This document shows, one piece after another, positions 1 to 34,117 of a stretch of DNA of 64,000 nucleotides; the first letter of the stretch is position 1; every line of letters starts with the position of its first letter. The position numbers were made by a program, and so were the translations under genes. Origin of the DNA: Candidatus Poribacteria bacterium (GTDB taxonomy: Bacteria > Poribacteria > WGA-4E > WGA-3G); contig JAPOZO010000034.1 of assembly GCA_026706025.1 (NCBI GenBank), positions 1-64,000 on the forward strand, in the 5' to 3' direction. The notes beneath the pieces are model-generated. The model was not told where the DNA came from, searched no databases, and saw only the letters and a program-made list of their open reading frames with translations.

Positions 1-321
1 GGTTTCGCCAGTAGCTGGATCAACTTTGAAGACCTCACCTGTCTCGGCATCAGTATCCCGGATAGGACGCCAGCGTTCGCCAGAACCGTTTGCAGCCAGC
101 CAGAGCGCGCCATCTCCATACGTCATCCCGCTTGTGTTGGAGCATTCGCTCGGAATGTCGCGGATAAGTTTCGGCACGGTATAGTCCGGGTCTGATGTGA
201 TTTCAACTAAGGCGACTCTATCGGTAATCTGGTCAACGATCCATAAACCGTCGTCTGTAACTTGTAAACCGTTCGGCACGGCATAGGGGGATCGGAAGGC
301 TTTTTCAATTTTTGTTATCAT
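1..321 (-). CDS. SMP-30/NHL-type beta-propeller protein, 5' part only
   Basis: Reading frame open from an ATG at 321 to the window edge, 107 codons, so the C-terminus is missing. The translation begins MITKIEKAFRSPYAVPNGLQ and continues with propeller-like strands such as DDGLWIVDQITDRVALVEI and a GALWLAANGSGERWRP stretch, ending in the typical blade connector TGEVFKVDPATGET. This pattern fits the SMP-30/gluconolactonase or NHL beta-propeller superfamily (lactone hydrolases or sugar-binding propellers). No signal peptide is visible, so it is probably cytoplasmic. It lies 22 bases downstream of the selenoprotein-like gene and could be cotranscribed with it. The exact substrate cannot be named from a fragment. 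Confidence 0.7.
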   Translation of the reverse strand, partial: MITKIEKAFRSPYAVPNGLQVTDDGLWIVDQITDRVALVEITSDPDYTVPKLIRDIPSECSNTSGMTYGDGALWLAANGSGERWRPIRDTDAETGEVFKVDPATGET

Positions 322-342: not shown

Positions 343-1551
343 CTATCTCCCTACTTGCGCTAAAGATGACTTTAGCCACGTTAGATATTGGGATTTCCGT
401 TCTTTAGCGATTGGAACGGACTTGATAAACTCGTTTGTCGGTAGATTCTGGATAAACGCTAATTCCGGTGTTAGAATCATGGGATCAACAGGATAAACAA
501 AGTGTTCTTGGAGTTTTGTGGCTAAGGCAGCTGCAGCAGCTCCTTTGGCACCGTCCTGAAGATCCGGTAATTCTTTGAGTAAAACCCATGTATTCACAAA
601 CTTTGTGTTAAGCAACTTGATAACTCTCGTTGAGGAGAGCGGACCCGCTCTCAAAGTTTTACCTGTCCCTCAGCAGGATTCGTCATCAAGTGTCCCAAAT
701 AAAACTAACGCATGGATGGGACGATTTGTTCCTTTCGCGAGTTCAACGACATCTTCAATCGGTGTCCACTCGATTTCAGCGAATTTGTAGAATGCAGTCG
801 CTAACTTTTTGCGAGTTTCTTCTTCAGTAATGGTAGTTTCCCATGCTATCTCGTGTATAGGTGCGTCTGATAAAGCCGAGAGTTCCATGTGAGGAACAAA
901 GACAATGTCTGCTACGCCGAATGCATTAATATCCACATTGCTATTGCGTGAAGGAAGCGAAAGTGAAAACTTATAGAGACGCCGTGTGTTCCGATTAATT
1001 ACCAAGTGTCCAGCAAATTGTGCAGGCATAAAAAGTGCCTCGGGGCCATCTAACATAAACAACGCATGAATTCGGAAAGCGATCTCAATATGTTCGGGCG
1101 AAATTGCTTTTAAACATGCTTTGGCTCCATTTGTGCCTTTTCGGACTTGCCTTTCACGTTTTTTGCTGTAGTACCGAAGTTCCGTTGTTACCCCCAGGTG
1201 AAATTGGCGAAGAAAAGGAAGAATCTCTTCTGAATCTATATCCCAAACATCTCCTATGTCGACGGGTGACGGCGGAAGAAAGACTTGAAAATCTGCTGTG
1301 CTGTAATTTTTCAGTGGGTGCAAGGGTTTGAAATTAAACAACTCTAAGGTGTCTGCCAACTCCATGTTCACTGGTTCTGGCCACCTTGCTTTGAGCCGAT
1401 CAAACTTTTCTTGTGTGGGTTGGTGCAAATTGTATGTCGCATCCGCAATTGGATCCCGATGTGCTTGTACTTGCACCGTTGCTGCACTGCTGAGAGCATC
1501 ACTAAAGTCTACCACGATTTTATCTCCCGTCATCAAAATTCCCCATTTCAA
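343..1551 (-). CDS. Candidate selenoprotein with C-terminal thioredoxin-like domain (in-frame UGA)
   Basis: Two minus-strand ORFs in the same frame (1551-673 and 669-343) are separated only by a TGA at 670-672. Read through, they give one 402-residue protein with selenocysteine at residue 294 in the context LDDESC-U-GTGKTL. Residues about 280-400 look like a thioredoxin fold: a hydrophobic strand (HALVLFG), the C-U pair, a helix, then NTKFVNTWVLL as the next strand and a later DPMILTPEL strand-turn with a cis-Pro-like proline. The N-terminal 280 residues are not recognised. Just 3' of the UGA is a hairpin with a GGUC loop in the right place for a bacterial SECIS. The start may be the second ATG (1533), which has GGGGA in front. 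Alternative: a true stop or a pseudogene, but codon-like sequence continues for 108 residues with no other defect. No sel genes lie in the window. Confidence 0.75.
635..652 (-). promoter_or_regulatory. Bacterial SECIS-like hairpin
   Basis: On the minus strand an 8-bp perfect inverted repeat, GAGAGCGG / CCGCTCTC, closes on GT, or as a 7-bp stem on a GGTC tetraloop. The loop begins 24 bases after the UGA at 670-672, inside the spacing expected for bacterial SECIS elements (roughly 16-37 bases). The GGUC loop resembles the GGU of the E. coli fdhF element, which SelB recognises. The usual bulged U in the stem is not evident, so the match is partial. Confidence 0.65.
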
Positions 1552-1611: not shown

Positions 1612-1866
1612 TTACCGGATCCGCCGCATGTATTCGTCGTGCTAGCCTGCCCAAAACCAGACGAAGGTGTTATTTGCTTTACGTGCTACTGCCCGATAGC
1701 CCTTACAGATTCTAATAGCCCAATGATCTCCAACTTTTTTAAAATGGAGGGAAGGATGTCTTGGATTTTGCCGTAGCAACTCAAATTTCTGAGGGACCCG
1801 TCTCTGAACATCTTGCCGGAGTTTCGCGCAAAACCTCCAAAAATTTTCATTCAGGATGTGTTCCAT
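1612..1866 (-). pseudogene. RelE/ParE-like toxin, cut near its C-terminus by an amber codon
   Basis: The frame from ATG 1866 encodes about 74 residues with features of small RelE/ParE-superfamily mRNA interferases or gyrase toxins: NPRHPSLHFKKV, then HWAIRICKGYRAV and FVWFWAG. Family members usually continue after WFW-G with a His-Asp/Ala-Glu-Tyr segment. Here a TAG at 1642-1644 interrupts, and the same frame then reads HDEYMRRIR followed by TAA at 1612. So the gene looks intact apart from one nonsense codon that removes the last nine residues, including a segment that often holds catalytic residues. An upstream in-frame start at 1896 exists, but the family N-terminus fits 1866 better. It lies downstream of the probable antitoxin with a 167-base gap, longer than usual for such pairs. 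Confidence 0.6.
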
Positions 1867-2033
1867 GTTTGCGTTTATTCCCACAGTTAGCCACAAATTA
1901 AGCAGGGAGTTAATCTCATTTTCCAGTTTTGGTGTTCTTCTCGAAAATATAGCCCCCGTCGTTCAGGCACAATTTTGAACGGAGTCGGAACTTCAGATAG
2001 ACTTTAGAATCTGCATGGAAAACAAACTCTAAT

Positions 2034-2372
2034 CTACTTATTGTTTTTTTCTACCAATTCTTGAAGTTTGTCCAATTCATAATACCTGCCCTCTCGAAAA
2101 TTTTTAAGGGCTTTTTCAGAGAGATAATCCAGATGTCCTGCCTTCACATCCGCCTCAAACTGTTTTTCCCACGCTTCCTGTTCAGCTTCTAAGGCTTCAT
2201 GTAGGTCTTTCACAAGAGTTTTTAGTAATGCTTCTCTCGTGTACTCTTCGCATTCTACTTCGGGGACTTCTGGTATCCATCCTATCCACGCGGCACCGTT
2301 TTTTTGGATGTGGGCAGTGTAGGTCTCTTCGTAGACCGGATCTCGAATTTCAACAACCTGAATTGCTTTCAT
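2034..2372 (-). CDS. Antitoxin-like protein (HicB-like N-terminus)
   Basis: 112 residues. The N-terminal half (AAWIGWIPEVPEVECEEYTR-EALL) resembles the HicB-type partial RNase H fold seen in antitoxins and related small proteins. The C-terminal half is helical and charged, with a segment ADVKAGHLDYLSEKAL like the tails of antitoxins that pair with RelE/ParE toxins (acidic-AG-x-L-D-x-L). It is upstream of the truncated toxin on the same strand, the usual antitoxin-first order, so it probably neutralises that toxin and represses its own promoter. A good AGGAG-type site precedes the ATG (GGAGGCGACAAAT). The pairing is inferred from order and family resemblance only. A stand-alone HicB-like protein is possible. 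Confidence 0.55.
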   Translation of the reverse strand: MKAIQVVEIRDPVYEETYTAHIQKNGAAWIGWIPEVPEVECEEYTREALLKTLVKDLHEALEAEQEAWEKQFEADVKAGHLDYLSEKALKNFREGRYYELDKLQELVEKNNK

Positions 2373-2449: not shown

Positions 2450-3523
2450 TTAGTAAACGCCTACGACGACGCTTTCTTGAAGTTCGGTGAGGAGACGGAG
2501 GTTTTCAACGCCGTCCCAGGGGTATTCTGGTATCGGTTCGGCGCGTTCGGCTTCGTCCCGTTCAAGGAAACGAGGGACAAAAAATTCTTTTGTTAGGGTT
2601 GTGAGCATGACGCGCCCAGTTTCACCGTAATCAACAGTTTCCTCTGGGTTTTCTGGGTTAACGAGTTCAATGACAGCACGCGGCGATGGCGGATAATAGA
2701 TAATTGCGTAGTTATCCGCTGGATCAAAAGGTTTGCAGGTAGCTAACCCCATGAGTGTATTGCCGTAGGTCGGGATAAAGTCAATGCCCGGTACGAGTTC
2801 TTCACGTGCGAATCGGTGGAACTGTGCGTCCATCTCGGTGCCACCGCAGAAAATGCCTTTGATACCGGCTTTTGGCAAGGAAATTTTTTCACAGAGTGCC
2901 TCCAGCAGCTTCGGCGTGGTGAAAAGGCATTGAACGTTTTCATGGGCGCGTAGTACGTTGAGTGCCTGCGAGATCACATGGTTTTTATACCCGTCCAACT
3001 CCTCATTTTTCCCGTAACGCACGAGTTGGTTCACCCAGCGCGGGTCGAGATCTACGTGGAAACAGATACCGCCACGATGTTGCGCGAGATGCTCGACAGC
3101 GAGCCGTAACCGGCGCGGTCCGGTTGGACCTAACATGAGCCAATCGCTACCGGGTGGAAAACCTTCGTCAGAGAGGGTTTTACTGAAAATCTCATAATCG
3201 ATATGGAAATCTCGGATGCTAATCCGTGACTTCGGAACACCTGTTGAGCCGCCGGTTTCAAAGACATAGATCGGTTCCTTGGCGTAAGCCTTCGGTACCC
3301 AGCGTCGGACGGGTCCACCGCGGAGCCATTCATCCTGGAAATGTCCGAGGCATTTGAGGTCGGCATAACCGCCTATTTCTTTTCGCGGATCAAAGTCGAG
3401 ATTTTCAGCGTATTCCAACCAGAAAGGAGATCCGGTCTTTGGGCTGAAGTGCCATTTGACGATTTCCCGGACATGTGCATCGAGTGCTTTTTGGTTCTCA
3501 GTAATTTTTCGGGTAAGGTTCAT
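2450..3523 (-). CDS. Adenylate-forming enzyme, PaaK/F390-synthetase-like
   Basis: 357 residues. The key motif is TGGSTGVPKS at residues 90-99, a version of the AMP-binding P-loop (T/S-G-G/T-T/S-G-x-P-K) of acyl-CoA synthetases, phenylacetate-CoA ligases and coenzyme F390 synthetases. Later segments CLFTTPKLLEAL, GIFCGGTEMD and FIPTYGNTLMG fit the A5-type region that binds the acyl-adenylate, and YGETGRVMLTTL fits the hinge-proximal DxGRxxxTxL. The protein is shorter than typical 430-500-residue PaaK proteins, so the mobile C-terminal domain is reduced or missing. It is expected to activate a carboxylate with ATP; the substrate is unknown. Its ATG overlaps the stop of the upstream propeller gene (ATGA at 3520-3523), which implies translational coupling. 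Confidence 0.75.
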   Translation of the reverse strand: MNLTRKITENQKALDAHVREIVKWHFSPKTGSPFWLEYAENLDFDPRKEIGGYADLKCLGHFQDEWLRGGPVRRWVPKAYAKEPIYVFETGGSTGVPKSRISIRDFHIDYEIFSKTLSDEGFPPGSDWLMLGPTGPRRLRLAVEHLAQHRGGICFHVDLDPRWVNQLVRYGKNEELDGYKNHVISQALNVLRAHENVQCLFTTPKLLEALCEKISLPKAGIKGIFCGGTEMDAQFHRFAREELVPGIDFIPTYGNTLMGLATCKPFDPADNYAIIYYPPSPRAVIELVNPENPEETVDYGETGRVMLTTLTKEFFVPRFLERDEAERAEPIPEYPWDGVENLRLLTELQESVVVGVY

Positions 3524-12526: not shown

Positions 12527-15500
12527 TTAATTGTAGGGTTGGTTAAGTTGTAAGCGGAGTACACCGCGGTGCCGCGTGCCGATATAGAAAATGCCACGAT
12601 CAACAGCAAAAGCGGTTATTTTGTATGGAACTTTAGATGAAATCCGAATCAATGTATCTGTCTCCGCGTCTATCCGATAAACGCCTCGGTTAGTTACACC
12701 GTAGACCTGATCACCATCTACGGCTATCCGAGCAATCAGGGGACGGTTGCCCTCTGTATCGGTGAGTGCGTGCCAATTGATACCGTCGTGCGAATCCATA
12801 ACCCCCTGATCTGTTACGACATAAACCGTAGCAGCCGCAAAAATTATCTCTTGAAAATATGCGAAACGGAAGGGTAAATCTGCGGTAATCTCTTTCCAAC
12901 TCTCTCCGCTGTCAAACGATTGAAATAGCGAACCATCGCGTTTACCGACATAGACGACATTCTGCGAAGCCGCGAGGGTGAGACCTTTAGATGTATCTGC
13001 CCCCGGGGCGCGTTTGGTGGTATCTTCAATACCGGTATTGAACCATTGCGCTTCACCTTTTCGCCATCTGAAGAGTTTATGCCGGAATTCCATGTAGACC
13101 GTTCCATCTGCTATTGTAAACCGACCATTTGTGAGCTGCTCTTCAATGATATTAGGAATATCTATTCTCATTTGGTAACCCAATTCACTACGGCGACGTC
13201 CAGCAGGCGCATTATTGATCTGTTTCATCCATTCAACTTGTAGCGTACTTTCAGCAAATGCGGGCACTCCTTGGACAGCCATTAGCATACCTCCATCAGC
13301 AGAAAGGTGGTAAAAACCGACATTATTAGATGTACTGTTGCTTACGTAAAGTGAATCGTTAGCTGTCGCGATTTTTGCGTAACTCAGCAAATCTGGAGCT
13401 GCTTGTTTCTTTTGAAGTTTACCTGCTGCCACAACAATGTCATGAACATTTACGCCAATGGATATCCACGATTCCCCGAGATCCGTTGATTTGACCATAC
13501 CTTCAGGCGTGAGGGCACAAAGTGCATTTTTAAGGGGAACCAGACTTTGAACGTGTGAGTTTACTATTCCAGTAAGGAAGGGATGCCACGATCTACCTGC
13601 GTCTGTTGACCGAGCAACCCCAGAGATATCCGAGGTATAAAAGTTATTTTCGTCCAGCGCGACAACGGGGAAGATACTCTGACTCAAGGCATTCTTGCCA
13701 ATGCTGATATCCTTTCCGACATCTGTCCATGTATCACCACTATCAGACGAATGTAGTAAAACGCGTGTCCCCATCACTACGAGCCTCTCGCCAACTGCAG
13801 CTAACTGGATACCACTGAACATTTGGAGTCGGAAACCGTCATCTGTTGGTGGTAACTCCATCCATAATCTACCGCCTGTGCCTTTCCCCTCTACCGGTGA
13901 AATATCAATCCAAGTATTGCCCAGATCGGTAGAGCGGAAAATTCTCGGTGGAAACTCTAATATCTCAGTTGAAAGATTTAAGTCTTGATATTCAAACCTT
14001 GTAGGTTTTGTAAAATCGGGACCCGCTACAACATAGAGTTTACTCTCCGTGGCTATCAACGCATTAATAAATTGAGGACCGTAGAGCGGCAATAACTCCC
14101 AATCATCTGTGGTAACACGATAAAGCCCTCGGTTTGTCCCGACGAATACGCTGTTGTCAAGTGCAACAGCGTCCGAAACTGAGATGTCAGGTTTGCCATT
14201 CATCTTCATAATATAGGCGTGCAAATCTGGCATCATCGGTATCCAACTTTTACCGGCATCGTCAGACCGAAAGATATGTTTTTCAAAAACGAGGTAAAAC
14301 ATTTCATCCGTGATGAGCAATTCAAAAGCCCGTCCTTCTGGTCGAGGACCGACGGTATCCCACGTTTCACCGGCATCGGTTGAGGCTAATAATTCATCAT
14401 CGGTCAAAATATAGAGTATATCGTTCCGCTCTGCCATCGGCGTTTGGAACTGACGGGTCGGGGTACTTTCACAGATCAACGTCCAAGCCTTTTCATCTTC
14501 TGTCAAGCGGTAGATTCCTCTCGCTGCAACAGCGTAGAGGGTTCGGTTGGATGTCGCAAATAGACCGACTCTGCCCCCTGAAGTGCCTTCTGGACCGCCC
14601 ATCGGCATCCACCGCGATTTGATTATAGTAGGTTTCTCAGGTTGGTCAGATCGATCTGCGATGACTTGAAATGCTGTCGTTTCGCGGTTCGCGTTTCCGT
14701 TATGCGTGCCCGGTGTATCGGTGTTTCCGATCTGATTTCTCGGACTCAGTTTCTGCTTTGAAGCATTAACAACGGGCGCGTCAACGAGCTCAACGGTCAT
14801 CTCCGCTGTTGCGTCGAAACTATAAGGTTGCTGAAAGCGAGGTAGGTATTGCGTGCCGTTGCCCATTAGCAGTATTACCAAGGCAGCCGTTGAAGCGGCG
14901 ACCGCCCACGGCATCCACGGCTTACTGCCTGATGGTGGTGCTGGTTTGATACGGACGATTTCTTTCAAAACATTTTCGGTTAAAGTCGTGGTAAACTGGA
15001 AACCGCCCAAATTTTCGTGGATGATATGTTCTGCCTTCTTCAATCGCTTACGAGCGCGATGCAGCCGACTCTTGACCGTGTTCGGCGATACACCTAAAAA
15101 CTTACTAATATCTTCGCATGTCATATCGCCGAGGTAGTGGAGCGTGACGACGGTGCGTTCACTCTCCGGTAACTTTTGAAGGAGACGTTTGACGACCTCG
15201 CGTTTCCCTTCACTGACGAATTCTTTTTGTTGTTCAACTTGGTATTGCGCACAAGCCAATTCCTCCAATTCCTCTGTTGACATCGCATCGAGCGATTTCA
15301 TTGGAATCCGCTTCTTTTTGCACCAAGCGTAACATCGGCGAGCTGCAATTACGTAAAGCCATCCCGCAAACCTATTCGGATTTTTCAGCGCCTGGAGCTT
15401 TTTGTAAACTTTGAGGAATATATCTTGCGTGATTTCTTCAGCGATATGGAAGTCCCCAATTTTCCGCCATACGAGCGCGTGGACCGGCTTTTGGTATCTT

Positions 15501-15574
15501 CGCACGAGCGCGCTGAAAGCGGACTGGTCGCCTGCCAAAGTCCGTTGAACCAATTGCGCATCGTTATTTTTCAT
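12527..15574 (-). CDS. ECF sigma factor fused to a membrane-anchored beta-propeller
   Basis: 1015 residues. Residues 1-90 are sigma-70 region 2 (ALVRRYQKPVHALVWR, AEEITQDIFLKVYKKL, NRFAGWLYVIAARRCYAW). Residues 130-180 are region 4 with a helix-turn-helix (LPESERTVVTLHYLGD, EDISKFLGVSPNTVKSRLHR). A transmembrane segment follows at about 221-238 (WMPWAVAASTAALVILLMG). The remaining 750 residues are BNR/Ycf48-type propeller blades with repeated S-x-D-x-G-x-S/T-W turns (STDLGNTWIDIS, SSDSGDTWTDVG, STDAGRSWHPFL, SFDSGESWKEIT). The design suggests a transcription factor tethered to the membrane with an outward sensor, perhaps released by proteolysis. Such fusions are known in Planctomycetes/Poribacteria-like genomes. 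No separate anti-sigma gene is next to it. GAGGTGA precedes the ATG. Confidence 0.85.
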   Translation of the reverse strand: MKNNDAQLVQRTLAGDQSAFSALVRRYQKPVHALVWRKIGDFHIAEEITQDIFLKVYKKLQALKNPNRFAGWLYVIAARRCYAWCKKKRIPMKSLDAMSTEELEELACAQYQVEQQKEFVSEGKREVVKRLLQKLPESERTVVTLHYLGDMTCEDISKFLGVSPNTVKSRLHRARKRLKKAEHIIHENLGGFQFTTTLTENVLKEIVRIKPAPPSGSKPWMPWAVAASTAALVILLMGNGTQYLPRFQQPYSFDATAEMTVELVDAPVVNASKQKLSPRNQIGNTDTPGTHNGNANRETTAFQVIADRSDQPEKPTIIKSRWMPMGGPEGTSGGRVGLFATSNRTLYAVAARGIYRLTEDEKAWTLICESTPTRQFQTPMAERNDILYILTDDELLASTDAGETWDTVGPRPEGRAFELLITDEMFYLVFEKHIFRSDDAGKSWIPMMPDLHAYIMKMNGKPDISVSDAVALDNSVFVGTNRGLYRVTTDDWELLPLYGPQFINALIATESKLYVVAGPDFTKPTRFEYQDLNLSTEILEFPPRIFRSTDLGNTWIDISPVEGKGTGGRLWMELPPTDDGFRLQMFSGIQLAAVGERLVVMGTRVLLHSSDSGDTWTDVGKDISIGKNALSQSIFPVVALDENNFYTSDISGVARSTDAGRSWHPFLTGIVNSHVQSLVPLKNALCALTPEGMVKSTDLGESWISIGVNVHDIVVAAGKLQKKQAAPDLLSYAKIATANDSLYVSNSTSNNVGFYHLSADGGMLMAVQGVPAFAESTLQVEWMKQINNAPAGRRRSELGYQMRIDIPNIIEEQLTNGRFTIADGTVYMEFRHKLFRWRKGEAQWFNTGIEDTTKRAPGADTSKGLTLAASQNVVYVGKRDGSLFQSFDSGESWKEITADLPFRFAYFQEIIFAAATVYVVTDQGVMDSHDGINWHALTDTEGNRPLIARIAVDGDQVYGVTNRGVYRIDAETDTLIRISSKVPYKITAFAVDRGIFYIGTRHRGVLRLQLNQPYN

Positions 15575-15607
15575 ACGTCACCTCTAAAAACAGGTTGTCT
15601 CTCATAA

Positions 15608-24252: not shown

Positions 24253-27200
24253 CTAACGGGGTTCAGGGTCAGGACTGCCGATTTTCAGATCTGTAAACGG
24301 TTTTCCGTCTGGGTCGGTAATCCGTAGATAGAATTCCCAATTGACTTCTTCATTGCAGACCTTGACGAGGATGCTATTTTCGCCGGGCTTGAGCGTCACA
24401 GGAATCGTATAACGGTCAATTCTGACACTATGGGCACCGGTATTTGTGAACACCTCTTCGCCGTTTAGAAAGACTGTCCCTTGGTCGTCGCTATCAAAAC
24501 GGATTTGTGCTTCGCGTTCATCAGGCGAGGTAACGGTCACAAACGCATAAGCGACACGCCAATTGACATCCTGTCCGAGGTCAATGAAGCCGTTGAGTGT
24601 GTCATCGGTGCTTCTTTGCCAACTGATCTGTCCGTCTACACCATCGTATTTTGCGGTTGTGTCGATCTGTGTTGCCTCTTCTGCGATGTACGCCGTGTCG
24701 TAACCAACACCTTTGGTGTTGTCAAAGGGACCGAGGATTAACCATGAATCTTCAGCGATAACGCCTGTTTTTTGAACATACGTTTTCGCTTTTTCTGGCA
24801 TAGCGTTTTCACGGCAGAACTCCGCCAACTTAAGATTAATATCTAATTGAATACCCAGATTGCCAGACATGGTATCCATTAATTCATCCAACATTTCAAC
24901 GTAACGTCCTTTGTCGGTAGCGTTCTTACCTGCCCGAGCAATCCATGAAGACAACCAGCGTCCAAACGCCTCCTGTTCCATGGTGTTTAGGCGTTGTTTG
25001 AGCTGTACTAAAGCCTCATCATACCGGTCATTAGCGACATACGCCTGCGCCAACGTTTCGGTGTAGCTTGCCCCGGACCCCATTTGCGATGCGCGTTCAG
25101 CGTATTCCAATCCTTTTTCCGGCATGATACCTTTGTCAAGAATCTGCCTTGCAAGATTGCGATAACCAGCGGGACTTTGTCGCCGGTTTGCGTTTTTCTG
25201 TTGGATCGTTAGCCACTCGGTGTATGCCACATCTGCTTTTTCAGCATCGCCTGCTGCTTTGTAGGCATCGCCTAACAATTCCAGTAAAGAAACACTTGTT
25301 CCCATTTTCGGTCTTAATTCCTCAAGAACAGCAATTCCTTTATCTTTCTGATCTTTGTCGGCGTAAAGCTTCCAGATGCTCCGGACTACGGCATTGTGTT
25401 CGCTCTCTTCAAGGGAAGCATCTAATGCCTGACGATACACCGTTTCCGCTTCTGACAACCGGTCTGCTTTCTCGTGGGTTTGTGCCAATAGGTTGTACAG
25501 TTCATAAGAGGTCGGTTCAAGTTGAATCGCTTTTTGATATGCTGCAGCTGCTTGCGTCAACTGTTCTGCGTCTACCACAGCTACGATCTGACGGGTATAA
25601 GGCTCCAGTTTAGCCTCCCCGACCAGTCTACCGTTGTTTTTGTTAGGTGACGCGTCAGGGATATGCCCTTCCATTTCTCCGTCAAATTCCCAGTAAGCGA
25701 CTAAGCCGGGTTCGTCCCCTTTCAATCGAGTGTTCATATTTGAACGGATCTCATCCGCTGTTAGTGCGACATCCCAGACAGCGACCCGATCAATTTGCCC
25801 TATAAATGAAGCATGCGTTACCCACTCTTCTTCATGAGAACCGCCGATTCGGACGGGCAGGTTGCTCTCATAAATGTTCTGATTCCCTCTAAAGTCTCGG
25901 GTCCCGACTTCAGCCCCATCAATAAACAGTTTAATGAAATTCCTTGGGGCATCAATGACCCCAGCGACGTGGTACCACTTGTTGAGTGTAACCGATCCTG
26001 GCGGTGAATATACACCTCTCTCCGCCTCACCACTTGGCGATGCAGCGAATTGGACTGTACCATCATTCCGTAGCCAGAGTGTGTAGCTTCGGTTGCTGAT
26101 TTCGGGTGTCCGCTCATCCCCCTTATAAAGAATGGGGGTATACCTGTTAGGGTATTCGATCGGTTTGATCCATGCGGTCAGGGTTACCTGCTGGCTAATA
26201 TTGTTCAGCGCAGCACTATCGGTAATCTCCACGAAACTTCCGTTTCCAGCCAAATCCAGTGCCGTATCTTCAACAATTTTCTCCGTCTGACGGTGCTTTT
26301 GATAGAGATCACCAATCTTTTTGTGCCATTGTGCATCATCAGGTTGAAGTTCACTGATTTTTTGGTATTGGGCGATTGCCTCGTCAACCTTATCGCCTAA
26401 TTCGTAACTTTCAGCAAGTGCGAAATGTGCGTCAAGGTCATCAGGGTTTTCCTTGATCTTCTGTAACTGCTCGGGAATCTGCTTTTCATAGAGTTTCCCT
26501 TCAGTGTAAGCCTGACGTATTGCCGCCTCTGCTCTTTCCCGCCCTTGGTCAAATCTGGCAATGTTCGCCATCTGTTTATAAGCGTCAACGGCTTCTTCAT
26601 ACCGTTTCGCGCCGAGGTAACTCTGCCCGAGGATTTCGTATACATACTCGTTCAGCGAAGAGAGCCCCCCGCCCATCCGTGAGCTTGCAGCCACAGCGTC
26701 CTCAGCAAACTTGACTGCCGAGTCGTACAACTCACCCTCAGCACAGATAGAGGCAAGTGTCATGAGTAAAAAGATATCGAATGGCGCGCGCGGATTGGTT
26801 GAAACCGCGGTCTCACCTTGACTGATCAACTTTTCTGCGAGTTCTGGTTGGTTGCTTTTTTGCAGCGCGGCAGCGGCATAGAAAAAACTATTGAGGTTAC
26901 TGGGTTGTGCTTTGCAAAGTGCCTGATATGCTTCTGCCGCCTTTTCATAATCGCGTGCATTCCGGTAAATTTCAGCAACCATTTCAAGAACCGCTGGATT
27001 CTGTGCGTCCTTTTCGAGTTTGTCGTTAAAGATGGTTTCCAATTGACCAAGTTTCCCTTGATTTTTATAGGCATTAATCAAGGTTTCGCGCGCCTCATCT
27101 CCAGCAGTCATAATTTTGAAACCGGACGAACTGGAACTAATAGAGAAACTACCCATTGGACCGGACTGAGACTGATTCTCATAGAGTTCTACCGCCAAAT

Positions 27201-30200
27201 CGTTATCGCCAACTTGGACGTATAGTTTCAGTAACTCGTTGGTGATGTTCCCGCGTTCATAACTTTGCGTGGTCATATCCAAGGCTTTCTTATAAGCCTC
27301 AATTGCTTTCTGAAATTCACCGGCGTTCCGGTAGTCTTGTGCGCGGTTTCGCTGCATCTCAAGCGTTATCGTGCCAGCCTCTTCCGCCTGCTTTAGCATC
27401 TCTTCTAATTTGCCCTGACGCTTGTAGACGGTCATGAGCTGCCGTTCTATACTCCGACGTTCCCACTCTTGTCCTGTGTATTGGATGGCATCCTTGAATG
27501 CCTTCTCTGCGGCATCCAGATCATCCTTCCGAAGGTAGAGTTGTGCCAATTGACGATAGACGCGCCCGTCACCGGGATTACGTTCAACGGCTTTTTTATA
27601 TGCCTCAATGGCATCGTCAACGCGGTCTTCGGCAGCATAAAGTTTCGCGAGCCGCGCATAGTGAACACCGTTCTCTGTATCCGCCTCAATGTATTGCTGT
27701 GCGAGTTCAAGTGCTTCGGGGGTTTTGTCAGCAGCTTGGTAAGAATCAACGAGTCCGTCCTGATACTTCGTGTTTTCGGGATCTTCGTCAAGTAAGGCGT
27801 TCCAAGTATCTACCGCCCTATCGTGCTTATTTTGACGTGAATAGAGATTTGCGAGTTGTGCGCGTGATTCGAGATCATCCGGCATCACCTCTGCGAGTTT
27901 CTCGTAAATTTCTACCGCCTTTTTGACCTCGTTCTGTTGGACGTACTGTTGTGCTAACGTTCTTTGCATCCCGACATCAAACTTTTCCGTTTTCTCAGGC
28001 GTACGGGTTGTCTTCGCCAACCCATCACGTCGCTGCTTGATTTGCATCAACTGTCGTTGCGCCTGTTCACGGGTCCACTGTTGTGTTGAGAAGTCATTAA
28101 TGATCTCGGTAAAGAGTGCCTCAGCATCGTCCCACATTTCGTGTTGCAGGTACGTGTTCGCGATTTGCTCTTTCTCATAGGAGCCATGCCTCTGAAGTAG
28201 GCGGAGGGTCCCCATCTTACGGAATGTATCTTGCGCTTTCTCTTTCTCACCCTTCTTGGCATAAGCCGTGCCAAGTTTTTGATAGGTTTCCGTAAGATGC
28301 CGTGTATCTTGATGATTGATTTTTGCGATTGTAGACTCCAGCAAACGCAGTTCCCGATCTCTGTCATTCGCGCTTCGGTAAGCGTCGGCGAGATTGTTTA
28401 ACCAGTGTGTATCCACAAGTGTTGAATCATCAAGGAGTTTGTCAACGAGCGCGTCTGCTCCTTCAAGGTCGTCCGCTGTAATCTTCATAGAAGCGACGAG
28501 ATAAGTTAGCAACGCGTCGTCGGGTTTCTCATCGAGTTTTGCTTCATATTCGGTTAGCAATTCCGCTATCTGCTCTGATGCTTTGTAGAACTCAGTCAGT
28601 TTTGATACGATCTCTACCTGTGCGTGTGGATCTCGCGAGAGTGTCGTATCTTTTGCGTTGAGTTTTTCGCGTAGGAGCTGGATCGCCTTTTCACGATCAC
28701 CTGCGGCGACATAAGCGGCAGCCAATGCGGTATAGGAAGAAGCGTTGTTTGGCTGCAGGGCAATAATTTTTTCGTAGAGTTCAATAGCGGCTTTAGGATT
28801 ATTGTTTTCAAGGGACTGACGTGCCACGCCTTCTGCGAAAAAGTTGCTATAGTTCAGTCCGACAGATGGAACGATCATATCTTTCGCGAGCGAAACGAGT
28901 TCATCAACTTTGCCTGCGGAAAAGAAAGTCTGCATGACCTGATAATAGTTGTAGCTGAGTGCGTTCGGATTCTCTTTGAGGAGTATCAGGTATTGCGTTA
29001 CAGCCTCCTTCGCCTTGCCGCGGCGCTCTAACATCTGCGCGTATCGCTGTCGTGTCATAGTGTCTTGAGGACGCAGGGCAAGTGCTGCGTCAAATGCTTC
29101 GGCTGCTTTTTGCACCTGATTTGTCTGTTCATAGAACGTCGCCAATCTGACGCGTGCCTGAAACGAATTAGGGTCTTTCTGGGTAGCTGCAACGAGCAGA
29201 GGTTCGCGTTCTCGCAACCCTTTTGCACGCCCGGCGGTCTGTACGGCGCGTCGAAAGTCCCACGAATACAATGTGCGTCCGTATCGGTCGCGCTGGTTGA
29301 CGAACTGCATTGCGCGCGCGGCGATCCGTGCGGCATCCTGTCCTCGCCCTAAGTCATCCAAATGTTGGCTTAAATCTACAAGGAAGTTCGGATCACGTTC
29401 ACCCATTGCCAAGGTCATCGCTTTTTTGGCAATAGCGATTGCGTATTGCGTGAGTCCGTTCTGTTGGAGGATTCGCGAGAATTGATAAAGTTCACGAGTC
29501 CCACTCGGTGAATTGAGTACCTTCGTCACCAATTCGCGTACAGCAACGGTATCGCCTGTCTGCACGGCAAGCTGGAGTGTGAGTTCATGGTACTGTTTGC
29601 GGTTTCTTGGATCCGCCTCAGCGAGTCCGGTAATTAATTTGAATGCTGCGGCGTGTTGTCCTGCTTGGATAGAGGCAAAAATCGTGTTTAGTTTAAGGGT
29701 GAGATCCTCAGGGAATTCCTTTTGAAGCGCGGAGAGCACCTCTTGGGCATCGTCACGCTGCCCTGCCCACCAATAGCAATAACTGAGTGCTAAACTCGGG
29801 TAGATCCGGTCTCTCCCTGTCGCACTCTCCAATTCAGTCTGCAATTTTTTGTATAATGCCTCCTGCTGATTGCGGGACCACAATTGACTGAAAACCCGCT
29901 GGAGGAACTGTAAACGGTTTTGATCGTAGTAAGTCGTCGGCGATGGATAGTTTGTCTGTAGGGATGTGTAACCGGCGTAAGAGCGATTTGCGTATGCTAA
30001 GGTTGCGACGCGCCGTGCGTTTGTCGCTTGCGGTTTGGTTCGTTCAAAGAAGTTCCAGAACAGCGCAATCCCTTTGTCGGTCTGTCCTTCACGAATATAA
30101 GCAGTGGCGAGATTTTGATAAATATCCCGATACTGACGCCATTGCTGTGATGCGTAGGGATTGGGGAACCCAACCCCTACGCCGCTTGCTGGCAGTTGCG

Positions 30201-33200
30201 TATTTTGTGCTGACTGACGTTGCGGCGTTGAAAGCCCTGGTACCTGAATCTGTGTAAGGATTTTTTCGGCAGCGTCTGTTTTCCCCATCCGTGCGAGCGT
30301 ACTCACAATCGTCGCGCCTGTATTAAGGTCAGACACTTCTGCATCTACAAGTTCTACCACCAGTTTCTCGGTATCTTCTTTCCGTCCGTGCCGATAGAAG
30401 TTACTTGCATATCGTGCGATATACCAGAGCCGTGCGTCAGGGGCTAAAGCGGTTATTTCATCAAGATATTTTTTCAGCGTTTCATAGCTGATGCCTTGTC
30501 CGATTAATCGAGTCAAGCGCGTTCCGTGATAGACAGGGTCGTTGGGTGATACGGCAATTAGCCGTTCAAGTGTTTCATTCGTTTTGTCGGTATTGCCGGT
30601 TAAGATATAGATTTGTGTTAACGTTTCGAGGCCCTTTATGTTTTTCGGATCGGCATCCACTTGTGCTTCAACCTGATTGATGAGTTCTCCCAATTTTCGT
30701 TGTTGTTGCGCGATTGTGGTTATCTGTACGAGCGCGCCCGCTTGCGCCTCTTCAAAGTTCCTCGGTATCCACTGGGTTTGCCGTCCCCCCTGAATCTGAA
30801 ATGCGGATCGCTGAATTCGAGAGGTGAGCGTTCGCGGCAAATCAAATCTATCTGTCCTGATTCCGGGAGGTCCAGATGTCGCGTGAGGTGTATTTGTGAT
30901 TAGGTTCTGTGTTGCATGCTGCGTCGGTTCAGGCATGTCAAGCACCTTTTGAAACAGCGGACGTGCCCGGTCATATTCGTTCATTTCGACGAAGGCATCA
31001 CCCAGTTGATACAATTCAAGATGCGCGTTTGGACCTGTTACCTTTTCTGCTGCCCGATCAAGCACAGAAATCGCCTCATCTAACAATCCGTGCTGAATCA
31101 GTAAAGTCGCGAGTTTAATCTCTGCGTCAAACGGTTGATTTTTGGTATGGAGAAGTTTAGTCCACGCCTGAATCGCCTCTTGTTCCCGCCCGACATCAAA
31201 TAGTAATTCACCGAGCCGTTGCCTATGCATAGGATTCGGTTGTGCCTTGACGAGTCGCTGTTGATAGGTGAGTGCATCCTGTGTATCACCGAGATCAAGG
31301 CTGATTTTGACGAGTTGTGCCAAGAGATCCGGGTTATCGCGTTCCCGATCCAAAGCACGCGCCAGCTGGAAATGTGCGTTAGGCAAGTCGCCCTCCATCT
31401 GATAGAGGTTCGCCAATGCGACGACGGAACCTACATCAGATGTGTTGGTTTTCGACATCTGTTTCAATCTTTCTTCCAACTCGCCGCGTCGTCCCAAGTC
31501 GTAATATACCTCAGAAAGCGGTTTGACAAAAGCGAGCTTATCACTGATGCTTCCACTCAATTCCCAACACCGCCAGTACTGTTCAAGTGCCTGTCGAGGG
31601 TTTCCTGAAAGTTTATAAATTTCAGCAAGTTCGGAACGGATGTTAGTAGATTCTGGTCGAAGCCGAATCGCCTGCTTGAAGCTATCAATAGCCGTCTGGT
31701 AGTTTCCCGCCTGCTTCGCGATGAGTGCGAGCATCTGATGCCCTTCAGGGTTGCGCGGGCTGTGGGCAATTGCTTGCTTCGCTGCATCCGTAGCGGCATC
31801 AAAATCCATGACTTCGAGATAGGAATGCGCGATGTTTGTATAGTATTCGCGGGCATTTGCGCTGTCAACTTCAATCAGGTGGGTATAGATAGCGTTGGCA
31901 TCATCACGCCGTCCCTGCAAAGTGTATACTTCCGCGATCCAACGGTTAACAAGAACGTCATTGGATTCAAGAGCCTTTGCTTTCATAAGGACTTCAAGTG
32001 CATAGGTGGTATTGCCGAGTTTAAGGTACATCTTAGCGAGCTGCTTGTATTGGTTGAAAGCATCCGCAGCCGCAATGTCTGGTTTTTCAAGTGCCGTTTC
32101 CAGCGCACTAATTTTTTCAACAAGCGTCCCTTGTCGCCGATAAATTTCGATGCGTTGGTTATCCATCTGTTCAGCGAAAAATTCGTTCGGTGCGAGTTTC
32201 GCGGCTTCAGTGTATTCCGTTAGTGCTTCGTCATAATCTCTGTTCTCCACAAGTCGCTTCGCCAATGCCTCACGATAACGGTATACATCGGGTGCTAACT
32301 CAGCGGCTTTTCGGCTTGCAGCGATAGCTTCGGTGCCGCTGTTTAGGACGCGTGCTTTGCTATCAAGGAGCTTCGCGAGACGGTCATAATTTTCGGCGAC
32401 TGCCTTATCACCAGCAACCATTCTGTTCCATGTCTCCAAAGTTTTTGCCCGATCTCCTTCTCGGAAGTAAAATTCGCCGAAATATTCGATGTAATCAAGG
32501 TTCCCGGGTGCCAGTGAAATCGCCTTTTGATATGCTGTGACGGCATCATCCATCCATTCATGATTGGCGTAAATCTCGGCAAGGATAAGGTGCGTGCTTG
32601 CGTTATCGGGATCGCGTTCGAGCATCCGTTGATAGGTTGCTCTTGCTTTGTCTTCGTCATCTAATTGTAAATACAACTCACCGAGTTCGCGGTAGAGACC
32701 GAAATCGTCGGGTTGTTGCTCGCTGAGGGATTCGTAAGCTGCAGCCGCTGCTTCAAACTGTTCAGCGTTGCGGAGTGCAGCGATTAGGTTCAAGCGGAGC
32801 GTAGTGTCTGTCGGTGCGAGTTCAAGTGCCTTCTGATAAGCATCAATGCCCTCGTCTAACTGCTGGTTTTCAATATGTGCCTCGGCGAGCAAACCGATGA
32901 GTTCTGGATCGTTTGGTGTATTTTCAAGTTTTTCTTTATAGTGTGTGATTAAGCCTTCCCAGTTTCCGTCAGCGGCGTAAATGCCGATGATGCGATGCTG
33001 AAGGTCTTTGCGTAACCAGTTTCCGGGTGCCGTCAACGCCAATGCGGCTTCGTAGGTTTGAATGGCAGCCTCGTAATCACTCTTTTCCTCGTGTATATTC
33101 CCGATCTCCCGACGACTCAAGCAGACGCGATATGGATCGTCGGTTTTAAGTGCGATAATCGCTTCATGTTGCGCGATGGCTTGTTCGTAGAGTTGTTGTT

Positions 33201-33813
33201 CTCGGAAGAGGTCTGCGAGTTCAATGCGGGAAAAAATGTTTTCTGGATCCAGTTCAGAGATTTTTGTCCATGCCGAAATTGCTTCGTCTACGCGGTCTCG
33301 GCTGAAATAGGCGCGTCCGAGTGCCTTGTAAATCGTCATCAATTCTTCAGGAGATGCGGTCTGTGTCTGTTCTGATAATTCTGCGGCTTTCGTTAACTCG
33401 CGGATTGCGTCCTCATGCCGACGCAGGGTTGCGTACATCTGCCCTAATGCGAAATGGGGATAATAACCGTTTGGTGCCAGTTCAACGGCACGTTGATATG
33501 CAGCAAGTGTCTCGGCATCTTTTCCGAGGCGTTTATGGATATGACCCAAGATAAGTTGGAGGTTTGAATCGTTAGGTTTGGCTTGTGCTTCCGCTTGATA
33601 ATCGGCAACCATAGCATCTAAGCCATCACCTTCAAGATAGAATTGGTAGAGTCGGTCGAACGTACTTCCCTCTTTTGGGTTGCGACTGAGCATTAATTTG
33701 TAGCGCTCGACAACTTTTTCGTCTTGGGCGAGGGTGATTGCGGGATAGTAGAGAGTGCAGGATAGTAGATAAAGCACACACGCGACGCTTAAGCATTTTT
33801 CTCTTGTGAACAT
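24253..33813 (-). CDS. Giant secreted TPR protein with embedded LamG and C-terminal sugar-binding-like domain
   Basis: 3186 residues, signal peptide at the N-terminus (LSVACVLYLLSCTLYYPAITLAQ). Most of the chain is tetratricopeptide repeats of about 34 residues (NLQLILGHIHKRLGKDAETL, YYPHFALGQMYATLRRHEDA and many more), several dozen in all, forming a very long superhelix for protein binding. A LamG domain is inserted at about 2510-2740 (TALDLAGNGSFVEITDSAAL, WYHVAGVIDAPRNFIKLFID). The last 165 residues (DSWLILGPFDNTKG to the end) resemble a glycoside-hydrolase galactose-binding-like jelly roll with FLNGEEVFTN. One stretch at about 1212-1222 (VGVGFPNPYAS) is encoded by an intergenic-type palindrome. 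AAGGAG precedes the ATG. Location is presumably periplasm or surface; role unknown but likely a scaffold. Confidence 0.9.
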   Translation of the reverse strand: MFTREKCLSVACVLYLLSCTLYYPAITLAQDEKVVERYKLMLSRNPKEGSTFDRLYQFYLEGDGLDAMVADYQAEAQAKPNDSNLQLILGHIHKRLGKDAETLAAYQRAVELAPNGYYPHFALGQMYATLRRHEDAIRELTKAAELSEQTQTASPEELMTIYKALGRAYFSRDRVDEAISAWTKISELDPENIFSRIELADLFREQQLYEQAIAQHEAIIALKTDDPYRVCLSRREIGNIHEEKSDYEAAIQTYEAALALTAPGNWLRKDLQHRIIGIYAADGNWEGLITHYKEKLENTPNDPELIGLLAEAHIENQQLDEGIDAYQKALELAPTDTTLRLNLIAALRNAEQFEAAAAAYESLSEQQPDDFGLYRELGELYLQLDDEDKARATYQRMLERDPDNASTHLILAEIYANHEWMDDAVTAYQKAISLAPGNLDYIEYFGEFYFREGDRAKTLETWNRMVAGDKAVAENYDRLAKLLDSKARVLNSGTEAIAASRKAAELAPDVYRYREALAKRLVENRDYDEALTEYTEAAKLAPNEFFAEQMDNQRIEIYRRQGTLVEKISALETALEKPDIAAADAFNQYKQLAKMYLKLGNTTYALEVLMKAKALESNDVLVNRWIAEVYTLQGRRDDANAIYTHLIEVDSANAREYYTNIAHSYLEVMDFDAATDAAKQAIAHSPRNPEGHQMLALIAKQAGNYQTAIDSFKQAIRLRPESTNIRSELAEIYKLSGNPRQALEQYWRCWELSGSISDKLAFVKPLSEVYYDLGRRGELEERLKQMSKTNTSDVGSVVALANLYQMEGDLPNAHFQLARALDRERDNPDLLAQLVKISLDLGDTQDALTYQQRLVKAQPNPMHRQRLGELLFDVGREQEAIQAWTKLLHTKNQPFDAEIKLATLLIQHGLLDEAISVLDRAAEKVTGPNAHLELYQLGDAFVEMNEYDRARPLFQKVLDMPEPTQHATQNLITNTPHATSGPPGIRTDRFDLPRTLTSRIQRSAFQIQGGRQTQWIPRNFEEAQAGALVQITTIAQQQRKLGELINQVEAQVDADPKNIKGLETLTQIYILTGNTDKTNETLERLIAVSPNDPVYHGTRLTRLIGQGISYETLKKYLDEITALAPDARLWYIARYASNFYRHGRKEDTEKLVVELVDAEVSDLNTGATIVSTLARMGKTDAAEKILTQIQVPGLSTPQRQSAQNTQLPASGVGVGFPNPYASQQWRQYRDIYQNLATAYIREGQTDKGIALFWNFFERTKPQATNARRVATLAYANRSYAGYTSLQTNYPSPTTYYDQNRLQFLQRVFSQLWSRNQQEALYKKLQTELESATGRDRIYPSLALSYCYWWAGQRDDAQEVLSALQKEFPEDLTLKLNTIFASIQAGQHAAAFKLITGLAEADPRNRKQYHELTLQLAVQTGDTVAVRELVTKVLNSPSGTRELYQFSRILQQNGLTQYAIAIAKKAMTLAMGERDPNFLVDLSQHLDDLGRGQDAARIAARAMQFVNQRDRYGRTLYSWDFRRAVQTAGRAKGLREREPLLVAATQKDPNSFQARVRLATFYEQTNQVQKAAEAFDAALALRPQDTMTRQRYAQMLERRGKAKEAVTQYLILLKENPNALSYNYYQVMQTFFSAGKVDELVSLAKDMIVPSVGLNYSNFFAEGVARQSLENNNPKAAIELYEKIIALQPNNASSYTALAAAYVAAGDREKAIQLLREKLNAKDTTLSRDPHAQVEIVSKLTEFYKASEQIAELLTEYEAKLDEKPDDALLTYLVASMKITADDLEGADALVDKLLDDSTLVDTHWLNNLADAYRSANDRDRELRLLESTIAKINHQDTRHLTETYQKLGTAYAKKGEKEKAQDTFRKMGTLRLLQRHGSYEKEQIANTYLQHEMWDDAEALFTEIINDFSTQQWTREQAQRQLMQIKQRRDGLAKTTRTPEKTEKFDVGMQRTLAQQYVQQNEVKKAVEIYEKLAEVMPDDLESRAQLANLYSRQNKHDRAVDTWNALLDEDPENTKYQDGLVDSYQAADKTPEALELAQQYIEADTENGVHYARLAKLYAAEDRVDDAIEAYKKAVERNPGDGRVYRQLAQLYLRKDDLDAAEKAFKDAIQYTGQEWERRSIERQLMTVYKRQGKLEEMLKQAEEAGTITLEMQRNRAQDYRNAGEFQKAIEAYKKALDMTTQSYERGNITNELLKLYVQVGDNDLAVELYENQSQSGPMGSFSISSSSSGFKIMTAGDEARETLINAYKNQGKLGQLETIFNDKLEKDAQNPAVLEMVAEIYRNARDYEKAAEAYQALCKAQPSNLNSFFYAAAALQKSNQPELAEKLISQGETAVSTNPRAPFDIFLLMTLASICAEGELYDSAVKFAEDAVAASSRMGGGLSSLNEYVYEILGQSYLGAKRYEEAVDAYKQMANIARFDQGRERAEAAIRQAYTEGKLYEKQIPEQLQKIKENPDDLDAHFALAESYELGDKVDEAIAQYQKISELQPDDAQWHKKIGDLYQKHRQTEKIVEDTALDLAGNGSFVEITDSAALNNISQQVTLTAWIKPIEYPNRYTPILYKGDERTPEISNRSYTLWLRNDGTVQFAASPSGEAERGVYSPPGSVTLNKWYHVAGVIDAPRNFIKLFIDGAEVGTRDFRGNQNIYESNLPVRIGGSHEEEWVTHASFIGQIDRVAVWDVALTADEIRSNMNTRLKGDEPGLVAYWEFDGEMEGHIPDASPNKNNGRLVGEAKLEPYTRQIVAVVDAEQLTQAAAAYQKAIQLEPTSYELYNLLAQTHEKADRLSEAETVYRQALDASLEESEHNAVVRSIWKLYADKDQKDKGIAVLEELRPKMGTSVSLLELLGDAYKAAGDAEKADVAYTEWLTIQQKNANRRQSPAGYRNLARQILDKGIMPEKGLEYAERASQMGSGASYTETLAQAYVANDRYDEALVQLKQRLNTMEQEAFGRWLSSWIARAGKNATDKGRYVEMLDELMDTMSGNLGIQLDINLKLAEFCRENAMPEKAKTYVQKTGVIAEDSWLILGPFDNTKGVGYDTAYIAEEATQIDTTAKYDGVDGQISWQRSTDDTLNGFIDLGQDVNWRVAYAFVTVTSPDEREAQIRFDSDDQGTVFLNGEEVFTNTGAHSVRIDRYTIPVTLKPGENSILVKVCNEEVNWEFYLRITDPDGKPFTDLKIGSPDPEPR
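30154..30180. repeat. Intergenic palindrome inside the TPR gene
   Basis: GTAGGGATTGGGGAACCCAA then CCCCTAC, near copy of 16939-16965. It is translated in frame as part of VGVGFPNPYA between two ordinary TPR stretches. Confidence 0.7.
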
Positions 33814-34117
33814 GAAGATCTCCTTGAGGAAATGTTTGGCGTTGGAAAGCCTAAAAATTTTTGAGACTTTTAAATCAATTTCCCAAAATAGATAACGATT
33901 TTAATATTTGTGGGTTTGCTATAAACATACCGTTCCTACGGAACTCAGGAGCGAACATTCACCTCACAGTTTATATCTGATATGCAAAGGTTTCGGTTTC
34001 GGAAGGCTTTCTGAGTGCAGGAAACACGCCTTTTTTCTAAAATTGACACTTATGGTTCACTTATAGTGACACACTTTAAGGGCAAAAAAGGTGCATAATT
34101 TTATGCAAAAATCGATT
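33814..34117. other. Upstream region of the giant TPR gene
   Basis: 304 bases, AT-rich, no ORF. It should hold the TPR promoter but no clear -35/-10 pair stands out. A CCTACGGAACTCAGGAGCGAA stretch near 33946 loosely matches the CTCGCTCCTAC repeats at 15768. Confidence 0.35.

What the first reader, a model, noticed from the sequence alone, without database searches (positions are those of the whole stretch)
343..1551. Probable selenoprotein with C-U dipeptide and thioredoxin-like tail
Two ORFs in one frame are split only by UGA. The protein-like text runs on for 108 residues, and the hairpin 24 bases past the UGA has a GGUC loop like bacterial SECIS elements. The C-U pair followed by G-T-G-K (ESC-U-GTGK) is not the usual C-x-x-U or U-x-x-C redox motif, and the N-terminal 280 residues are unfamiliar, so this may be a little-described selenoprotein family. 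Seen: frame, UGA, hairpin. Known: SECIS rules. Inferred: Sec insertion.
Basis: partly seen in the sequence, partly recalled or inferred. Interest (0 to 1): 0.75.

Follow-up and report, generated by a model that had tools for sequence, protein, structure and literature searches.

The report
Bacterial relatives of muscle selenoprotein N
This bacterial gene reads through a UGA "stop" to insert selenocysteine, and the protein it makes is a relative of selenoprotein N, a human protein whose loss causes muscle disease and which published surveys list only in animals and algae; the bacteria carry up to about 17 copies and could give a simple model for it.

Summary
On the minus strand one frame of 390 codons (1515 to 343, probable GTG start) is broken only by UGA at 672-670. 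Seventeen bases further on lies a stem-loop that meets the published bacterial SECIS rules. The genome has tRNA-Sec(UCA) next to selB, plus selA and selD. Ten family copies in this genome, and nearly all listed matches in 65 of 85 genomes of the phylum, carry a UGA. No Cys form with the motif was found in 84,980 prokaryotic species. Synonymous codons are frozen over the hairpin.

The protein is not of an unknown family: it belongs to selenoprotein N (SELENON/SEPN1). Against 341 C-terminal human residues (recalled from memory, then checked at 11 published variant sites) it is 35% identical over 278 residues. The C-U pair and disease residues R291, G315 and R469 are invariant in 27 bacterial members. 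The tail is a DsbH-like thioredoxin fold with Sec at the nucleophile position; the N-terminal beta domain has no confident PDB match.

A 2007 survey called SelN animal-specific, a 2020 survey found it in algae, and a 2026 catalogue of 119 prokaryotic selenoprotein families omits it. Most likely a thiol/selenol reductase; substrate unknown. Direction of any gene transfer is undecided.

The parts
343..1515 (-). SELENON-family selenoprotein CDS, 390 aa, probable GTG start at 1515, TAG stop at 345-343
   Evidence: Translation with TGA=U; start chosen by upstream GGGAGA and comparison with orthologues; 35% identity over 278 aa to the recalled human SELENON stretch.
670..672 (-).
   Evidence: TGA in 52 of 52 extracted homologues, always preceded by TGC Cys.
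635..652 (-). Bacterial SECIS stem-loop GAGAGC-GGGUCC-GCUCUC (7 bp with a GGUC loop if G646-C641 pairs)
   Evidence: Lowest-energy segment of the gene, z about -3.5; synonymous codons frozen; 90% of cells paired in 33 sequences, one two-sided change C-G to U-A in L068; meets published bSECIS rules (PMC13188914).
667..678 (-). S-C-U-G redox motif (residues 280-283)
   Evidence: C281 and U282 invariant in 27 aligned members; same motif as SELENON SCUG.
346..780 (-). C-terminal thioredoxin-like domain (about residues 246-390)
   Evidence: AlphaFold pLDDT 87.9, pTM 0.83; DsbH 2ju5 Z 12.5, Bab1_2064 7tkv Z 12.3, AGR3 3ph9 Z 12.2; profile match to thioredoxin-like proteins of the same genome E 4e-7.
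826..1515 (-). N-terminal beta-rich domain (about residues 1-230), shared with SELENON, no confident PDB match
   Evidence: AlphaFold of this part alone pLDDT 85.2, pTM 0.82; no Foldseek match E<=0.001, best VIA-align Z 4.1; holds residues matching human R291, H293, G315, N340.
1..321 (-). Downstream gene, 5' part only (contig starts here); looks by eye like a SMP-30/NHL-type beta-propeller
   Evidence: The same gene follows in 18 orthologous loci; no Pfam hit on this fragment.
2450..3523 (-). Upstream AMP-binding (acyl/aryl-CoA ligase-like) gene, conserved neighbour
   Evidence: Pfam AMP-binding 29.2 bits, just under its cut-off; same gene upstream in 16 orthologous loci.

Best explanation
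The gene encodes a bacterial member of the selenoprotein N (SELENON/SEPN1) family. Shown by sequence: one frame interrupted by UGA, a SECIS hairpin just after it, a complete Sec machinery in the genome, conservation of UGA in the homologues, and homology to SELENON along both domains. Inferred from known biology: SelB with Sec-tRNA(UCA) binds the hairpin and inserts selenocysteine at residue 282. The window copy has no signal peptide and is probably cytosolic; sister copies carry lipoprotein-like or Sec-type signal peptides. Inferred mechanism: in the thioredoxin-like tail Sec sits where thioredoxins have the first, attacking Cys of CxxC, the second Cys position is Gly, and the Cys just before Sec (C-U) is the resolving residue. 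The enzyme would attack a disulfide or oxidised thiol on a partner held by the N-terminal beta domain, form a C-U selenenylsulfide, and be reset by a thioredoxin-like donor. One subfamily carries a donor-like ResA/TlpA domain fused to it. My estimates: Sec protein of the SELENON family about 0.95; reductase mechanism about 0.5; substrate unknown.
For: UGA in all 52 homologues, after TGC Cys each time. 10 copies in this genome, each with one TGA. About 440 matches in 65 of 85 genomes of the phylum (my sum of the table), up to 17 per genome; of the listed rows only one N-terminal piece lacks TGA. SECIS by energy, codon constraint and pairing and by published rules. tRNA-Sec(UCA) beside SelB, plus SelA and SelD, over curated cut-offs. 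SelB over cut-off in 76/85 and tRNA-Sec in 75/85 phylum genomes. Recalled human SELENON stretch: blastp E 3e-40 to 3e-23 against all 27 members, profile 200 bits, none of 1000 shuffles reported. The recalled stretch agrees with 11 of 11 published variant positions and with length 590 (PMC8639696, PMC8967691). R291, H293, G315, C461, the Sec position, G465, L468, R469 are identical in all 27; N340 in all 25 with a residue there; R466 is Lys. Trx fold. Sec aligned with the first Cys of CxxC. ResA/TlpA fusion in 4 of 27 members.
Against: The human sequence came from my memory, not from a database, though it passed every check available here. No EF-hand was found and the window copy has no membrane anchor, so the calcium-sensor function of vertebrate SELENON need not apply. 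Pfam and NCBIfam have no model for the core. No biochemical evidence of Sec insertion exists here. The resolving role of the preceding Cys is inferred. In three of the four fused ResA/TlpA domains one Cys of the active site is lost, which weakens the donor reading.
Confidence: 0.92

Rival explanations
1. A separate bacterial thioredoxin-like selenoprotein family that resembles SELENON only around the C-U motif, by convergence.
For: No curated family model; the human sequence used was recalled, not fetched.
Against: The match covers both domains (35% of 278 residues), with invariant positions in the N-terminal domain far from the active site (R291, H293, G315, P334) and E-values down to 3e-40.
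Confidence: 0.04
2. An ordinary stop codon: a 281-residue protein ends at UGA and the rest is a separate or decayed reading frame, or is reached only by occasional read-through.
For: UGA is a normal stop in this genome (9 other long frames in the window); Sec insertion is usually incomplete in bacteria (general knowledge).
Against: The residues after UGA are strongly conserved (G285, K286, L288, R289, N303 invariant) in many copies with the same UGA, and they complete a thioredoxin fold.
Confidence: 0.02
3. UGA decoded as Trp or Gly through a variant genetic code.
For: Recoded UGA exists in some uncultured bacteria (general knowledge).
Against: The UGA-reading tRNA found next to selB is tRNA-Sec with anticodon UCA, UGA ends ordinary genes, and a SECIS hairpin follows this UGA.
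Confidence: 0.01

Closest known systems
Selenoprotein N (SELENON, SEPN1) of animals and some algae
   Same: Same two-domain core over roughly 280-330 residues; SCUG motif; Sec rather than Cys; disease-variant residues R291, G315, R469 invariant and R466 replaced by Lys.
   Different: SECIS directly after the UGA instead of in the 3' UTR; no EF-hand found; the window copy has no membrane anchor; 1-17 copies per genome; some copies fused to a ResA/TlpA domain.
DsbH / Thioredoxin_7 / AGR2-AGR3 / ERp18 thioredoxin-like domains
   Same: Fold of the tail (Z 12.2-12.5 to DsbH, Bab1_2064, AGR3, ERp18-type 1sen); profile match to thioredoxin-like proteins of the same genome, E 4e-7.
   Different: CxxC is replaced by C-U-x-x-G: Sec aligns with the first Cys, Gly with the second, and an extra Cys precedes Sec.
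Mammalian thioredoxin reductase GCUG motif
   Same: Adjacent Cys-Sec pair followed by Gly, able to form a selenenylsulfide (motif comparison made in PMC12839072 and PMC8584023).
   Different: In TrxR the motif is at the C-terminal end of a flavoprotein; here it is internal, at the active-site position of a thioredoxin fold.
Prokaryotic selenoprotein catalogue, 119 families/subfamilies (PMC13188914, 2026)
   Same: Several listed families are Trx-like or have a CU motif (KCU-star, SaoC, SaoL, HgcA, MbdU).
   Different: No SELENON-like family or SCUG motif appears in the table.

Membership tests
Bacterial selenoprotein gene | In-frame UGA at a position conserved in homologues | tested here: met
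   TGA in 52 of 52 extracted members; matches with TGA in 65 genomes.
Bacterial selenoprotein gene | bSECIS: 3-9 nt apical loop, 4-16 bp stem, G in first two loop positions, 16-37 nt from UGA, MFE <= -7.5 (PMC13188914) | tested here: met
   Loop GGUC or GGGUCC, 6-7 bp, 23-24 nt from UGA, -11.5 kcal/mol.
Bacterial selenoprotein gene | selA, selB, selC, selD in the same genome | tested here: met
   SelA 604 bits, SelB 352.8 bits, tRNA-Sec 78.1 bits with anticodon UCA, SelD 359.8 bits.
Bacterial selenoprotein gene | Sec found in the protein | not testable with these tools
   Needs expression, 75Se labelling or mass spectrometry.
SELENON family (by descent) | SCUG motif | tested here: met
   S280-C281-U282-G283; C and U invariant, S or A before and G or A after in 27 members.
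SELENON family (by descent) | Homology over the N-terminal luminal domain as well as the thioredoxin part | tested here: met
   Human residues from about 256 to the C-terminus align; blastp E 3e-40; R291, H293, G315, P334 invariant. Human sequence recalled, checked at 11 published positions.
SELENON family (by descent) | Thioredoxin-like fold around Sec | tested here: met
   AlphaFold plus PDB comparison.
Vertebrate SELENON as ER calcium sensor | EF-hand | tested here: not met
   No EF-hand in the Pfam scan of the window protein nor among the 25 families listed for 27 members.
Vertebrate SELENON as ER calcium sensor | Single transmembrane anchor at the N-terminus | tested here: not met
   No hydrophobic N-terminus in the window copy; some sister copies have signal-peptide-like N-termini, judged by eye.
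Vertebrate SELENON as ER calcium sensor | Redox control of a calcium pump | not testable with these tools
   Biochemical.

The most novel reading that the evidence does not exclude
Animal and algal SELENON arose by horizontal transfer from this bacterial lineage, or the bacteria took the gene from a marine eukaryote. The hairpin next to the human UGA (the Sec redefinition element) might then be related to the bacterial SECIS at the same place.
Probability: 0.15. Interest if true: 0.85.

Novelty: new variant of a known kind. Interest (0 to 1): 0.7.

Why it matters
SELENON was the first selenoprotein linked to an inherited human disease, its enzymatic activity is not settled, and a profile of this family finds no chain in the PDB, so no solved structure of this core appears to exist. 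Bacterial homologues of 390 residues without a membrane anchor, with a SECIS of the bacterial type, could make its chemistry and structure testable. They also place the family outside eukaryotes: a 2007 survey called SelN animal-specific (PMC2375036), a 2020 survey found it in algae (PMC7539508), and a 2026 catalogue of prokaryotic selenoproteins omits it (PMC13188914). Up to 17 matches to one Sec-dependent family in one genome is an unusual investment.

Tried and rejected
Pfam, NCBIfam and PDB sequence searches of the protein or its profile gave no family for the core. An Rfam scan gave only sub-threshold hits. A scan for a Cys form, DE[SA]CC[GA]xG[KR]xLR, over 84,980 species gave 3 matches, none homologous; it tests only that motif and spent the one genome scan, so organism names and relatives in other phyla were not obtained. 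Plasmids and IMG/VR viral contigs: none. A profile search of the 20 negative genomes of the phylum found only two weak matches to the accessory C-terminal domain, so within the phylum the family is confined to one order. Covariation of the SECIS is modest (one two-sided change), because two subfamilies pair in registers two bases apart; the support rests mainly on energy and codon constraint. For the N-terminal domain Foldseek and VIA-align found nothing above Z 4.1, which does not prove a new fold. A tree including the recalled human stretch placed it on the branch between two bacterial clades: no direction of transfer can be read from one sequence. IQ-TREE failed on the first try. Paper searches for bacterial SELENON or Poribacteria selenoproteins found no report, but most subscription journals are not held.

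Full report
Observation. Read from 1551 down to 343 with TGA=U, one frame gives 402 residues with a single in-frame UGA at 672-670, followed by 108 residues and a TAG. The first part ends in ESC and the second begins GTGK, as described. Comparison with close orthologues points to GTG at 1515 as the start: GGGAGA lies just upstream, and in L041 the same place reads AGGAGGTaaATG. This makes 390 residues with Sec at 282.

SECIS. After UGA come 17 bases, then GAGAGC-GGGUCC-GCUCUC (652-635). The published bacterial model asks for a 3-9 nt loop, a 4-16 bp stem, G in the first two loop positions, 16-37 nt from UGA, and -7.5 kcal/mol or lower (PMC13188914); all are met. Of 372 windows of 27 bases along the gene, the lowest energies are exactly here (E -11.5, z about -3.5 against synonymous recoding), and over 37 distinct homologous segments the mean z is -2.6. 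Codon choice is most tightly frozen over the stem: Leu+6 TTG/CTG 52 of 52, Arg+7 AGA/AGG only, Gly+9 GGT 43 of 43, Leu+11 CTC 50 of 52; at most other conserved positions synonymous codons vary much more. Pair counts on 33 sequences give 90% standard pairs, with one two-sided change, C-G to U-A. Two subfamilies fold in registers two bases apart (loops GGUC against AGGU/AGUU), which blurs simple covariation counts.

Machinery. The genome (6.27 Mb, 103 contigs, 96% complete) has tRNA-Sec at C84:129927-130016 (78.1 bits; ARAGORN: anticodon tca) next to selB (352.8 bits), selA at C89 (604 bits) and selD at C56 (359.8 bits, itself with an in-frame TGA). UGA is still a normal stop: 9 of 34 other long frames of the window end with it. 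SelB passes its cut-off in 76 of 85 genomes of the phylum and tRNA-Sec in 75.

Family. The genome has 10 copies, each with one TGA, including tandem runs on C56 and C63. In the phylum, 65 of 85 genomes have about 440 matches in total (my sum of the table; some are pieces of split genes), up to 17 in one genome, including single-contig genomes, which argues against a contaminant. Of the listed matches only one lacks TGA, and it covers only residues 10-170. In 52 extracted members the codon is always TGA and the one before always TGC. Alignment A1 of 27 members has 26 invariant columns, including C281, U282, G285, K286, L288, R289. A scan of 84,980 species for the Cys version of the motif found three unrelated matches. 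The family was not found in the other families of the phylum.

Identity. The SCUG motif suggested selenoprotein N. No database copy of SELENON is searchable here, so I wrote the human C-terminal 341 residues from memory and then tested that recollection. With Sec at 462 it gives length 590; all 11 variant sites printed in papers read here carry the expected residue (R262, R268, R291, G315, GYIP at 360-363, R439, W453, Sec462, R466, R469, M525; PMC8639696, PMC8967691); and its three N-glycosylation sequons are spaced 22 and 26 apart, as the published sites 448, 470, 496 are (PMC12839072). This stretch matches every one of the 27 bacterial members (blastp E 3e-40 to 3e-23 at a database size of 2e8; profile 200 bits; no shuffled copy reported). 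Against the window protein it is 35.3% identical over 278 aligned residues. Human R291, H293, G315, Sec462 and R469 are invariant in the bacteria, N340 is present in 25 of 27 with gaps in two, and R466 is Lys. R291, G315, R466 and R469 are patient-variant sites in the papers cited; that H293 and N340 are disease sites too is my own knowledge, and I found no held paper for it.

Structure and mechanism. AlphaFold on A1 gives pLDDT 87.9, pTM 0.83. Residues from about 244 to 390 are a thioredoxin-like domain nearest a Bacteroides Trx-like domain (3f9u, Z 13.4), DsbH, Bab1_2064 and AGR3 (Z 12.2-12.5). Profile alignment with thioredoxin-like proteins of the same genome puts Sec on the first Cys of CxxC, Gly on the second, and the extra Cys just before Sec (hhalign E 4e-7). 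Sec is therefore likely the attacking residue and its neighbour Cys the resolving one, comparable to the GCUG of thioredoxin reductase; this is inference. Four of 27 members carry a C-terminal ResA/TlpA domain, a hint that a thioredoxin-like partner supplies electrons; in three of the four that domain has lost one Cys (WNGFC, WHSFC), so the hint is modest. The N-terminal domain, modelled alone at pLDDT 85, has no confident PDB match. The window copy has no signal peptide; sister copies have lipoprotein-like or Sec-type ones by eye, so the family probably works both in the cytosol and outside it.

Neighbours. In close orthologues the gene sits between an AMP-binding ligase-like gene and a propeller-like gene. 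This does not name a substrate.

What is new. A 2007 survey held SelN to be specific to animals (PMC2375036). Algae were added in 2020, where it is almost only a Sec protein (PMC7539508). A sponge has it (PMC3473315). A 2026 catalogue of 119 prokaryotic families has no SELENON entry (PMC13188914). Within what I could read, a bacterial SELENON family is unreported; UniProt, InterPro and subscription papers could not be checked. With one recalled human sequence the tree does not settle whether genes moved, or which way.

Noticed in passing
L082 (G000:C56:238667-239590): selD itself has an in-frame TGA, so selenophosphate synthetase is probably a selenoprotein too.
   Followed up: no
L089 and L091 (G000:C77:16645-16893, C65:30211-30396): Two more thioredoxin-like genes with in-frame TGA in UxxC position (TUGFC, WUGFC), so the genome probably has further selenoproteins.
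   Followed up: partly
L054 4385-10477 (G000:C56): SelN paralogues alternate with WD40-repeat protein genes in a tandem array.
   Followed up: no
L058 (G000:C40:9345-9479): A 55-residue piece matching only the N-terminus of the family, probably a gene remnant.
   Followed up: partly
window 24253-33900: A single frame of 3215 codons, mostly TPR repeats with a Laminin_G_3 domain.
   Followed up: partly
window 12527-15577: An ECF-like sigma factor (regions 2 and 4) fused to a long tail with BNR/Vps10-like matches.
   Followed up: partly
window 1642-2372: Two small genes between the ligase-like gene and the SelN gene that look by eye like a RelE/HicB-type pair; no Pfam hit.
   Followed up: partly
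SECIS stems of alignment A2: Two SECIS versions in the same codons pair in registers two bases apart, tracking Gly-Pro against Val-Val or Gly-Val in the protein.
   Followed up: partly
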